DNA of 63,115 bases, from NCBI GenBank assembly GCA_035533755.1, contig DATLTC010000087.1, positions 1-63,115 on the forward strand. The letters run 5' to 3'. Source of the stretch: Gemmatimonadaceae bacterium. Lineage in GTDB: Bacteria > Gemmatimonadota > Gemmatimonadetes > Gemmatimonadales > Gemmatimonadaceae. The notes under the pieces are model-generated. The model made no database searches and had not been told where the DNA came from. It was given only the letters and a program-made list of their open reading frames with translations. The translations under genes and the position numbers were made by a program. Positions within the stretch are counted from its first letter, which is position 1; every line of letters begins with the position of its first letter. Shown here in pieces: positions 30,606 through 45,477 of the stretch.

Positions 30606-31367
30606 TCACACCGTCGCCGGAATGCCGAGCCGCTCCGCCGCTTCCTGCGCGGCGTGGAACAGCAATCCGAACGTGTCGATCACGAACAGCACGTCCTGCA
30701 CACGATCGATCTCGAACGGCTGCGCGAGCACGGCGTCCACCGAGAACGGCCGGCGGTCGCAACCAGGCCCCAGGGCATTGGCGGAGTCGGCGTGCGACGA
30801 GATCAGCCCGCTCCCGTAGACCTTCACCTCCCCCGCCTCCTTCACGAGACCGAACTCCACCGTGAACCAGAACAGGCGCGCCATGCCCTGGATCTGCTCC
30901 TCGCGCTCGGCGCGGCAGGCGATCTGTCCGAACCGCTGCAGGTAGTCGGCAAACGCCGGGCTCGCGTGCAGCGGCACGTGGCCGAATACGTCGTGGAAGA
31001 TGTCGGGCTCCGGCAGGTAGTCCAGCTGCTCGCGCGGCCGCACGCTGACCGTGGTGGGAAAGGTCCGCGCGGCGAGGCAGCGAAAGAACTCCGGCGCCGG
31101 CAGGAAGCCCGCCACCGGGGCCGCCTTCCACCCCGTGAGCACGCTCAGCTTCTCGTTCACCACGCTTAGATCCGGCACGCAGTCGGGGCAGAGCCCGATG
31201 CGCTCGGCGCCGCGCAGATACACCTCGCTGCCATGGCGCGCCAGGTCGGCCATGCGGCGTCCATAGAGCACCGCCCAGACGTCGTGCTGTTCGGCCGTGT
31301 AGTCGTTCCACCGCTGCTCGATGAATTCGGGCTCCGGGATGCGCACCTTCTGGCTGACGTCCAGCAT
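30606..31367 (-). CDS. phhA: Phenylalanine 4-monooxygenase
   Basis: Iron- and tetrahydropterin-dependent hydroxylase converting phenylalanine to tyrosine; 253 residues, the normal size of the bacterial enzyme without an ACT domain. The iron ligands are visible: His125 and His130 in DIFHDVFGHVPLH and Glu171 in FWFTVEFGL. Substrate-site segments RPREQLDYLPEPD and KVYGSGLISSHADS are intact. The ATG at 31367 is preceded by GAGG. It lies 18 bases downstream of an intrinsic terminator (31386-31422) and 78 bases downstream of a Tyr/Trp-rich leader ORF, suggesting attenuation by charged tRNA. Its cofactor-recycling partner, pterin-4a-carbinolamine dehydratase, is at 45190-45477. Confidence 0.95.
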   Translation of the reverse strand: MLDVSQKVRIPEPEFIEQRWNDYTAEQHDVWAVLYGRRMADLARHGSEVYLRGAERIGLCPDCVPDLSVVNEKLSVLTGWKAAPVAGFLPAPEFFRCLAARTFPTTVSVRPREQLDYLPEPDIFHDVFGHVPLHASPAFADYLQRFGQIACRAEREEQIQGMARLFWFTVEFGLVKEAGEVKVYGSGLISSHADSANALGPGCDRRPFSVDAVLAQPFEIDRVQDVLFVIDTFGLLFHAAQEAAERLGIPATV

Positions 31368-31385
31368 GCTGACCTCGCGTGGGTG

Positions 31386-31422
31386 AAATAAAAAAGGCGG
31401 CCCGTGTGGAACACGGACCGCC
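31386..31422 (-). terminator. Intrinsic terminator (attenuator) in the phhA leader
   Basis: On the minus strand GGCGGTCCGTGT (31422-31411), loop TCC and ACACGGGCCGCC (31407-31396) form a 12-pair stem with one G-T wobble, followed at once by TTTTTTATTT (31395-31386). It lies 18 bases upstream of the phhA ATG rather than after a gene, as expected for an attenuator. The 3' arm's CACACGGGCCG is repeated exactly inside the leader ORF at 31481-31471, so the 5' arm has two possible partners. Confidence 0.85.
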
Positions 31423-31445
31423 TGAGGATTTGCTGCAGCGCTCGA

Positions 31446-31529
31446 CTAGCTACGCCCACGCCTCCGGCTTCGGCCCGTGTGAGAGGTCGAATACCAGTAA
31501 TAGCGATAGGCGCAGGTCGGCGTCTGCAT
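31446..31529 (-). CDS. Putative phhA leader peptide (27 aa, Tyr/Trp-rich)
   Basis: A short ORF, ATG 31529 to TAG 31446, with aromatic run AYRYYWYSTSH at residues 7-17 (Tyr8, Tyr10, Tyr11, Trp12, Tyr13) followed by an Arg-rich tail. Four Tyr codons and one Trp codon within six codons, immediately before an alternative RNA-pairing segment and a terminator, are the hallmarks of a transcription-attenuation leader. Tyrosine is the product of PhhA, so stalling for lack of charged tRNA-Tyr would logically raise phhA expression. No ribosome-binding site precedes the ATG; it may be read from a leaderless mRNA. Confidence 0.7.
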   Translation of the reverse strand: MQTPTCAYRYYWYSTSHTGRSRRRGRS

Positions 31530-31536
31530 GGGCCGA

Positions 31537-31565
31537 ACGATGGCGCGCCGGAGGCGGACTGTCAA
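31537..31565 (-). promoter_or_regulatory. Putative promoter of the leader-phhA unit
   Basis: A perfect -35 TTGACA (31565-31560), 17-base spacer, then CATCGT (31542-31537; 3/6 to the -10 consensus). The leader ATG begins 7 bases after the -10, so transcription would start at or next to it. It lies in the short gap after the upstream small membrane protein gene, allowing phhA to be transcribed on its own. Confidence 0.55.
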
Positions 31566-44428: not shown

Positions 44429-45112
44429 ATGGGTTTCTCGTCCAGCATCGCCACACCGGTCCGGTCCGGGGTCGAACGGGCCACGCTCGTTCGCCGCACG
44501 TACGGCCTCGTCTTCGTGGGCATCGTGGTGTCGCTCCTCGGCGCCGCGTTCGCGTTCACGCAAGCGGCCCTGATGAACGCGGTGGCCGCCCACCCGTTCA
44601 TCACCATGCTCTGCTGGTTCGCGCCGCTGTGGATGGCGCAGACCCAGTCGCGCAACTATCCGCGCAACATCATCCTCACCCTGCTGTTCACGTTCATCGT
44701 GGGCGTCTGGCTCGCCCCGATGATGCTGTACTACCTCAGGATGCAGCCCGGCGTGCTCGGCGAAGCCGGCCTGCTCACCTTCTCCGCCTTCGGCATCCTC
44801 ACCCTGTACGCCACGTTCAGCCGGCGCGACTTCAGCGCCTGGGGCGGGTTCTTCACCGTCGGACTGTTCGTGCTGTTCGCCACCATGCTCATCGGCATGT
44901 TCTTCCCGAGCGTGGGCGGCTCCCTCTGGATCGCGGGCGCCGGCGTGCTCGTCTTCTCGGGGCTCCTCGTCTTCGACACCTGGCGCATCACGCGCTCCGG
45001 ACAGTTCGGCGAGAACGATTACGTGATCGCCGCGGTCACCATCTATCTCGACCTGCTCAACCTCTTCCTGTTCATCCTGAGCCTGCTCGGCGGCGGCGAC
45101 CGCCGGCGCTGA
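44429..45112 (+). CDS. Bax inhibitor-1/YccA family membrane protein
   Basis: A 227-residue, seven-helix inner-membrane protein of the TMBIM/YccA family (calcium leak or FtsH modulator in characterised members). Helices include GLVFVGIVVSLLGAAFAF, IILTLLFTFIVGVWLAPMML, LLTFSAFGILTLYATF, FFTVGLFVLFATMLIGMFF and LWIAGAGVLVFSGLLVFDTWRI, then the conserved end DYVIAAVTIYLDLLNLFLFILSLL. The ATG at 44429 has CAGGAG 13 bases upstream. A perfect 18-base terminator stem follows. Confidence 0.94.
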   Translation: MGFSSSIATPVRSGVERATLVRRTYGLVFVGIVVSLLGAAFAFTQAALMNAVAAHPFITMLCWFAPLWMAQTQSRNYPRNIILTLLFTFIVGVWLAPMMLYYLRMQPGVLGEAGLLTFSAFGILTLYATFSRRDFSAWGGFFTVGLFVLFATMLIGMFFPSVGGSLWIAGAGVLVFSGLLVFDTWRITRSGQFGENDYVIAAVTIYLDLLNLFLFILSLLGGGDRRR

Positions 45113-45128
45113 ACTCACGCGCCGAATA

Positions 45129-45173
45129 CGAAACCGGCCCGCGGGCGATAATGCCCGCGGGCCGGTTTCGTTT
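45129..45173 (+). terminator. Strong intrinsic terminator between convergent genes
   Basis: CGAAACCGGCCCGCGGGC (45129-45146), loop GATAAT, and GCCCGCGGGCCGGTTTCG (45153-45170) form a perfect 18-pair stem followed by TTT. It lies between the convergent Bax-inhibitor and pterin dehydratase genes; AAA runs at the other end could make it work in both directions. Confidence 0.9.
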
Positions 45174-45189
45174 GGTGCCGCCGCGCCCG

Positions 45190-45477
45190 CTACCCCGCGT
45201 GCGTCTTCTCGATCCTGGCCGCCAGATCCAGATCCAGCTGCGTGATGCCGCCGGCCGAATGCGTGGACAGCGCGAAACACACCTTGGTGTAGCGGATGTC
45301 GATGTCGGGGTGGTGATCCATCGCGTCGGCGATGACCGCTACCTTGGCCACGAACGCGATCCCGTCGCCGAATCGCGGGAAGCTGAACGTCTTGGTGAGC
45401 ACGTCGCCGCGCCGCGCCCAGCCCAGCAACCCACCCAGCGCGCGCTGGATCTCGAGATCGGACAGCTTCGCAGGCAT
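45190..45477 (-). CDS. phhB: Pterin-4a-carbinolamine dehydratase
   Basis: A 95-residue enzyme that dehydrates 4a-hydroxytetrahydrobiopterin, the cofactor product of aromatic amino-acid hydroxylases. The active-site motif AMDHHPDIDIRYTKVCFALSTH (about 53-74) has the essential His pair and the second His of the family. GGITQLDLDLAARIEKTH closes the fold. It is the natural partner of the phenylalanine hydroxylase at 30606-31367 although 14 kb away and not cotranscribed. The terminator at 45129-45173 would end its transcript too. Confidence 0.93.
   Translation of the reverse strand: MPAKLSDLEIQRALGGLLGWARRGDVLTKTFSFPRFGDGIAFVAKVAVIADAMDHHPDIDIRYTKVCFALSTHSAGGITQLDLDLAARIEKTHAG

What the first reader, a model, noticed from the sequence alone, without database searches (positions are those of the whole stretch)
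31367..31565. Tyrosine-codon attenuator upstream of phenylalanine hydroxylase
The gene for the enzyme that makes tyrosine is preceded by a full set of attenuation parts. These are a promoter with a perfect TTGACA, a 27-codon leader ORF with Tyr8, Tyr10, Tyr11, Trp12 and Tyr13, and an intrinsic terminator with TTTTTTATTT ending 18 bases before the phhA ATG. The terminator's 3'-arm sequence CACACGGGCCG occurs again inside the leader ORF (31481-31471), starting 10 bases after the last Tyr codon. A ribosome stalled on Tyr codons would leave that copy free to pair with the terminator's 5' arm and so prevent termination. The logic (low Tyr turns on Tyr synthesis from Phe) is coherent. I do not know of a described attenuator on phhA. 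A weak point is that a ribosome at the leader stop does not fully cover the antiterminator copy, so the off state may need another pairing.
Basis: partly seen in the sequence, partly recalled or inferred. Interest (0 to 1): 0.86.

Follow-up and report, generated by a model that had tools for sequence, protein, structure and literature searches.

The report
Tyrosine-sensing attenuator before phenylalanine hydroxylase
A short tyrosine-rich reading frame and a conditional stop signal sit in front of the gene that makes tyrosine from phenylalanine, so that the gene is probably read only when tyrosine runs short; relatives across a little-studied bacterial phylum keep the same device and swap its codons to suit other amino-acid genes.

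Summary
The window is from a Gemmatimonadota genome. The same unit precedes phhA in 40 further non-redundant loci: Tyr-rich leader ORF, copy of the terminator's 3' arm inside it, and intrinsic terminator 20-38 nt after the leader stop. Antiterminator and terminator both show covariation. The leader ATG lies where transcription should start (TTGAC about 36 nt upstream, almost no Shine-Dalgarno), so the leader mRNA is probably leaderless. A covariance model trained only on phhA leaders finds siblings whose codon runs follow the gene: Tyr+Phe before DAHP synthase, Phe before pheA, Thr before aspartokinase, His before hisG. This genome has Tyr leaders before phhA and before a DAHP synthase-chorismate mutase-TyrA operon, and a His leader before hisG. 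No Rfam match; no described phhA or tyrosine-leader attenuator in the papers searched. The mechanism is known; target, amino acid and phylum appear new. There is no experiment, and the modelled off state is leakier than in E. coli trp.

The parts
31560..31565 (-). -35 element TTGACA
   Evidence: Sequence. TTGAC starts 35-38 nt before the leader ATG in 31 of 41 phhA leaders and 41 of 60 sibling leaders; background 2 in 8394 positions.
31537..31542 (-). -10 element CATCGT, 17-nt spacer, 7 nt before the leader ATG; predicted transcription start at the ATG (leaderless leader mRNA)
   Evidence: transcription start is inferred, not measured.
31446..31529 (-). leader ORF, 27 codons plus TAG, MQTPTCAYRYYWYSTSHTGRSRRRGRS
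   Evidence: conserved as a Tyr-rich ORF in 41 non-redundant loci.
31491..31508 (-). control codons Tyr8, Tyr10, Tyr11, (Trp12), Tyr13
   Evidence: Tyr is 13.2% of residues over 42 leaders, Phe 0.9%, Trp 1.4%.
31464..31497 (-). protector hairpin (helix 1:2): CUGGU.UUCG.CCU with GGG.CGAA.GCCGG; sequesters the copy
   Evidence: fold; helix 1:2 covariation, 83% of cells paired, 19 compensatory cells against 7.6 in shuffles.
31471..31481 (-). copy CACACGGGCCG (segment 2): pairs with the terminator 5' arm to form the antiterminator
   Evidence: dG -24.3 with the arm; helix 2:3 covariation, 86.6% paired, 6 pairs with changes on both sides against 2.0 in shuffles.
31411..31423 (-). terminator 5' arm (segment 3)
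31395..31407 (-). terminator 3' arm (segment 4)
   Evidence: helix 3:4 covariation, 10 of 14 pairs with changes on both sides.
31385..31394 (-). U-tract TTTTTATTTC
30606..31367 (-). phhA, phenylalanine 4-hydroxylase, 253 aa
   Evidence: Pfam Biopterin_H E 3.2e-44.

Best explanation
It is a ribosome-mediated transcription attenuator that lets phhA be transcribed when charged tRNA-Tyr is scarce. A transcript starts at or next to the leader AUG and a ribosome loads on it. With enough tyrosine, the ribosome runs through the Tyr codons and over the copy; the copy is covered or folded into the protector hairpin, the terminator forms and RNA polymerase stops near 31386. When tyrosine is short, the ribosome stalls on codons 8-13 and covers the 5' arm of the protector; the copy (31481-31471), just beyond the ribosome's leading edge, pairs with the terminator 5' arm before the 3' arm is made, and polymerase reads on into phhA, which makes tyrosine from phenylalanine. 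Shown by sequence and comparison: all parts, their spacing, three covarying helices, and codon identity following the downstream gene. Inferred: transcription start, termination in vivo, response to tyrosine, kinetic order of folding.
For: Parts present and exact. Forty-one non-redundant phhA loci keep the Tyr run, copy and terminator; the paired copy starts 6-15 nt after the last Tyr codon in 40 of 41, and stop to terminator is 20-38 nt. Covariation of helices 1:2, 2:3 and 3:4 exceeds shuffles and slid registers. The L002/L003/L111 group changed copy and arm together to different words, and L030, L144 and L142/L159 read the copy in another frame while keeping it as RNA. Codon choice follows the gene: Tyr:Phe is 143:10 before phhA, 198:72 before DAHP synthase, 3:32 before pheA; Thr runs before aspartokinase, His runs before hisG. 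Modelled stalling on Tyr raises antiterminator pairing from 0.24 to 1.00 in the window and does not lower it appreciably in any of the 41.
Against: No transcript or reporter data. The model's off state is leaky: antiterminator pairing averages 0.58 in free RNA and 0.71 with a ribosome at the stop codon, whereas E. coli trp gives 0.06 in both; in the window a ribosome at the stop gives 0.71-1.0 whatever footprint is assumed. At equilibrium the terminator wins in free and stalled RNA alike, as it does for E. coli trp, so the switch has to be kinetic. The protector region alone is no more stable than GC-rich shuffles. Some phhA genes of the phylum have no such element. The -10 element is weak.
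Confidence: 0.88

Rival explanations
1. A ribosome-controlled attenuator whose true signal is wider than tyrosine: general slowing of translation, or the whole aromatic pool, rather than charged tRNA-Tyr alone.
For: In the window's genus Trp codons sit among the Tyr codons (YWY in all four members). Closely related attenuators before DAHP synthase mix Tyr, Phe and Trp codons. Leaders that sense stalling more generally, such as the one before whiB7, are known (PMC13236596).
Against: Outside the genus Trp is rare and Phe almost absent before phhA (Phe 0.9% of residues), whereas pheA leaders are Phe-rich and Tyr-poor, p 6e-24 by a test that ignores relatedness. Thr and His siblings show that codon identity is what changes between genes.
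Confidence: 0.07
2. An ordinary terminator of the gene upstream (31969-31571), with an incidental short ORF; phhA has another promoter.
For: The terminator lies between two genes, and the -10 element of the proposed promoter is weak.
Against: The unit stays with phhA while the upstream sequence differs between loci; the promoter-to-ATG spacing, Tyr run, copy and protector are conserved and covary; the same skeleton precedes four other kinds of amino-acid gene.
Confidence: 0.02
3. An arrest peptide or a small functional protein: the Arg-rich leader peptide itself stalls the ribosome or acts in trans.
For: The C-terminal GR..RRxR pattern recurs in many leaders, and Arg is 20.5% of residues. A trp leader peptide is reported to act in trans in Sinorhizobium (PMC7298713, listed).
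Against: In L030, L144 and L142/L159 the same bases are read in another frame, so the RNA rather than the peptide is kept. The Arg codons largely coincide with the copy and with the tail that pairs with the leader's 5' half in 27 of 41 folds.
Confidence: 0.03

Closest known systems
E. coli trp attenuator (trpL), and the his, phe, thr, leu and ilv leaders of Proteobacteria
   Same: Short leader ORF with repeated control codons, protector 1:2, antiterminator 2:3, terminator 3:4; codon identity matches the pathway; stalling raises antiterminator pairing in the same calculation.
   Different: Senses tyrosine, target is phhA, phylum is Gemmatimonadota, leader probably leaderless, copy lies inside the leader ORF, modelled off state is leakier; no Rfam match.
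Leaderless polycysteine uORF attenuators of mycobacteria (Canestrari 2020, as cited in PMC9031893)
   Same: AUG at the 5' end of the transcript and a run of control codons for one amino acid.
   Different: Cysteine; described in PMC13236596 as translation attenuation, whereas here there is an intrinsic terminator.
Actinobacterial leader-peptide attenuators (trp, leuS, ilvB; PMC1262725)
   Same: Classical attenuators outside Proteobacteria in GC-rich genomes.
   Different: That survey found no conserved structure before tyrosine or phenylalanine genes and named T-boxes as the RNA control of tyrosine genes elsewhere.
Predicted attenuators before tyrA operons (Merino database, in PMC1173090)
   Same: Attenuators predicted before tyrosine genes, for example aroA-tyrA in Vibrio.
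   Different: The passages read show no Tyr-codon leader and no phhA target.
PhhR control of phhABC in Pseudomonas (PMC1173090)
   Same: Regulates phhA.
   Different: Sigma-54-dependent activator for Phe/Tyr catabolism; here RNA control with a biosynthetic logic.

Membership tests
Ribosome-mediated (trp-type) transcription attenuator | short leader ORF with a run of codons for the amino acid made by the regulated gene | tested here: met
   Four Tyr codons in the window; Tyr 13.2% over 42 phhA leaders; codon runs follow the gene in siblings.
Ribosome-mediated (trp-type) transcription attenuator | intrinsic terminator between leader ORF and structural gene | tested here: met
   13-bp stem with U-tract; covariation.
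Ribosome-mediated (trp-type) transcription attenuator | mutually exclusive antiterminator freed by a ribosome stalled at the control codons | tested here: met
   Copy 6-15 nt after the last Tyr codon in 40 of 41; duplex -24.3 kcal/mol in the window; covariation; modelled stalling. Anatomy only; not shown in vivo.
Ribosome-mediated (trp-type) transcription attenuator | protector helix that hides the antiterminator segment when the ribosome does not stall | tested here: met
   Helix 1:2 covaries; not more stable than shuffles by energy alone.
Ribosome-mediated (trp-type) transcription attenuator | tight off state in replete conditions | tested here: inconclusive
   Pairing model: free RNA 0.58 and ribosome at stop 0.71 on average, against 0.06 for E. 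coli trp.
Ribosome-mediated (trp-type) transcription attenuator | expression responds to the cognate aminoacyl-tRNA | not testable with these tools
   Needs term-seq or a reporter.
Rfam amino-acid leader families | match to a covariance model at gathering score | tested here: not met
   No match in the window; no leader family even at E up to 1 for the window element and six siblings.
T-box (Tyr) | Rfam T-box model match | tested here: not met
   No match.
Leaderless uORF attenuator (mycobacterial type) | transcription starts at the leader AUG | tested here: inconclusive
   Predicted from TTGAC at 35-38 nt and a Shine-Dalgarno-like motif in only 1 of 41; no mapped 5' end.
Leaderless uORF attenuator (mycobacterial type) | cysteine codon run | tested here: not met
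   Tyr run.

The most novel reading that the evidence does not exclude
Gemmatimonadota use one inherited, probably leaderless attenuator skeleton as a plug-in sensor. The RNA words (copy, protector, terminator) and promoter-at-AUG geometry stay, and only the codon run is exchanged, giving Tyr for phhA, Tyr/Phe/Trp for DAHP synthase, Phe for pheA, Thr for aspartokinase and His for hisG: a phylum-wide set of attenuators evolved by codon swapping, with tyrosine sensed by a leader peptide.
Probability: 0.6. Interest if true: 0.75.

Novelty: new variant of a known kind. Interest (0 to 1): 0.63.

Why it matters
Leader-peptide attenuation is textbook for Trp, His, Phe, Thr and the branched-chain amino acids in Proteobacteria. 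[quoted passage not shown] This would add tyrosine sensing by a leader peptide, a new target (phhA, elsewhere mostly studied as catabolic), and a phylum with almost no known RNA regulation. The natural codon-swap series lets one ask how attenuators arise and change specificity. A genome whose single contig has the length I recall for Gemmatimonas aurantiaca T-27 (4,636,964 bp) carries a Tyr/Phe version before DAHP synthase, so a test in culture seems possible.

Tried and rejected
RNAalifold on the whole alignment returned only the terminator; the alternative helices had to be tested by naming them. A small GCG/CGC hairpin at the end of the leader showed no covariation. Single-sequence stability of the protector region is no better than shuffles. 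The consensus promoter scan found nothing because the -10 is weak. The weak R1 hits at window 45041-45321 lie on both strands at a GC-rich inverted repeat and were discarded. The trpE upstream region of this genome has no leader peptide or terminator that I could see. Miscounted structure strings cost three failed calls.

Full report
OBSERVATION. The gene is a biopterin-dependent aromatic amino acid hydroxylase (Pfam Biopterin_H, E 3e-44).

CONSERVATION. phhA relatives were taken from named genomes and from whole genomes of the phylum; record titles place them mostly in Gemmatimonadota. Forty-two leaders were curated; one (L107) is too divergent and was left out of the alignment of 41. In these 41 the copy can pair with the terminator 5' arm at -13 to -31 kcal/mol, the paired copy starts 6-15 nt after the last Tyr codon in 40, and the terminator starts 20-38 nt after the leader stop. 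Tyr is 13.2% of residues, Phe 0.9%, Trp 1.4%; TAT and TAC are both used (69 and 77), so the residue and not the base sequence is kept. Some phhA genes of the phylum have no such unit (L004, L006-L010, L013, L084, L012, L021, L050, L088). Four leaders come from contigs titled Acidobacteriales or Acidobacteriaceae (L016, L017, L028, L029); transfer or mis-binning was not resolved.

STRUCTURE. Three helices were tested by name. Helix 3:4 (terminator): 89% of cells paired, 10 of 14 pairs with changes on both sides. Helix 2:3 (copy with 5' arm): 87% paired, 6 of 10 pairs with changes on both sides, shuffles 2.0. Helix 1:2 (the segment right after the last Tyr codon with the copy): 83% paired, 19 compensatory cells against 7.6 in shuffles, though the number of pairs with changes on both sides (4 against 3.2) is not unusual. 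In all three, pairing falls sharply when the helix is slid by one column. Relatedness inflates shuffle-based tests, but the slid controls keep it. Helix 1:2 exists in quite different words: CGCG.CCCG/CGGG.CGCG in most, UUCG.CCU/GGG.CGAA in the window's genus, AGCU.UCGG/CCGG.AGCU in L002, L003 and L111. Its 5' arm is what a ribosome stalled on the last Tyr codons would cover. In untranslated RNA the whole window leader plus terminator folds with z -6.2, and the leader's tail pairs with its 5' half in 27 of 41 folds.

PROMOTER. TTGAC begins 35-38 nt before the leader ATG in 31 of 41 phhA leaders; further upstream in the same DNA it occurs twice in 8394 positions. A Shine-Dalgarno-like motif precedes the ATG in 1 of 41. 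With a 17-nt spacer and a -10 element ending 6-8 nt before the ATG in most, the transcript should start at the ATG. This is inference.

SWITCH MODEL. With the 5' arm out and the 3' arm not yet made, antiterminator pairing averages 0.58 in free RNA, 0.83 with a ribosome stalled on the last Tyr codon, 0.47 with a ribosome over the copy and 0.71 with one at the stop; for the window 0.24, 1.00, 0.61 and 0.98. E. coli trp under the same protocol gives 0.06 free, 0.71 stalled, 0.06 at stop. Once the 3' arm is out the terminator wins at equilibrium whether or not the ribosome stalls, for E. coli trp as well, so anti-termination has to be kinetic. The off state is leakier than in trp under this simple model; that is the main weakness.

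SIBLINGS. A covariance model trained only on phhA leaders found two more strong elements in this genome: G000:C44:1997-2143, 99.9 bits, leader MNRDPRSYAYYYRTARSTGRERRRMRG before DAHP synthase, followed by a chorismate mutase-like and a TyrA-like ORF; and G000:C62:28371-28516, 53 bits, leader MATIRTHHDTHHHHGITGRGRARVRG before hisG. In the phylum sample 165 of 395 genomes have a hit at E 0.001. Sixty further hits were fetched and read. Grouped by downstream gene, leaders before DAHP synthase carry on average 3.9 Tyr, 1.4 Phe and 0.4 Trp; before pheA 4.0 Phe and 0.4 Tyr; before aspartokinase 10 Thr; before hisG 7 His; before phhA 3.5 Tyr and 0.2 Phe. Tyr:Phe is 143:10 for phhA against 3:32 for pheA (Fisher 6e-24, relatedness ignored). 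Classes were assigned by protein motifs, with Pfam confirmation for one DAHP synthase, one amino-acid kinase and phhA; the prephenate dehydratase fragment scored just under its cut-off and the 61-residue hisG fragment gave no Pfam match, so hisG and the TyrA and chorismate mutase ORFs rest on the sequence as I recognise it.

KNOWN OR NEW. Rfam has no match for the window, and at E up to 1 no leader family for the window element or six siblings. [quoted passage not shown] A 2005 survey found nothing before Tyr genes in Actinobacteria and named T-boxes for tyrosine (PMC1262725). Attenuators of unstated type are predicted before some tyrA operons (PMC1173090). Searches for Tyr-codon leaders, Gemmatimonadetes attenuators and phhA attenuation found no description. 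Only open-licence papers are held, so absence there is not proof.

VERDICT. A real, well-conserved, trp-type attenuator with a tyrosine sensor on phhA, part of a wider set in the phylum. Known mechanism; new amino acid, target, phylum and probably leaderless start.

Noticed in passing
L175 / L272 (G000:C44:1997-2143 and downstream): A second Tyr-leader attenuator in the same genome, before a DAHP synthase - chorismate mutase - TyrA operon, so both routes to tyrosine appear to be under Tyr leaders.
   Followed up: yes
L176 (G000:C62:28371-28516, minus); L270: His-codon leaders with the same skeleton before hisG.
   Followed up: partly
L215, L228, L252, L261: Thr-run leaders (for example MTSAAICTTCTTTTTTTRVTGRGRECLRR) with the same skeleton before aspartokinase.
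   Followed up: partly
L216, L230, L231, L234, L238, L239, L241, L259: Phe-rich leaders with the same skeleton before prephenate dehydratase (pheA).
   Followed up: partly
genome G000: No prephenate dehydratase (PF00800) found in a 98% complete genome, while all 14 control genomes have it: possible Phe auxotrophy or an unrecognised enzyme, which bears on why phhA is tyrosine-controlled.
   Followed up: no
L276 (G000:C26:117812-119206): trpE of this genome shows no leader peptide or terminator upstream, unlike the aromatic genes above.
   Followed up: no
L030, L142, L144, L159: Leaders shifted by one base within the ORF that keep the copy as RNA but read it as a different peptide.
   Followed up: yes
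L124 (G352:C579): The attenuator lies some 260 nt from the phhA coding match, further than usual, with extra sequence between terminator and gene.
   Followed up: no
L016, L017, L028, L029: Same phhA attenuator on contigs titled Acidobacteriales or Acidobacteriaceae: horizontal transfer or mis-binning.
   Followed up: no
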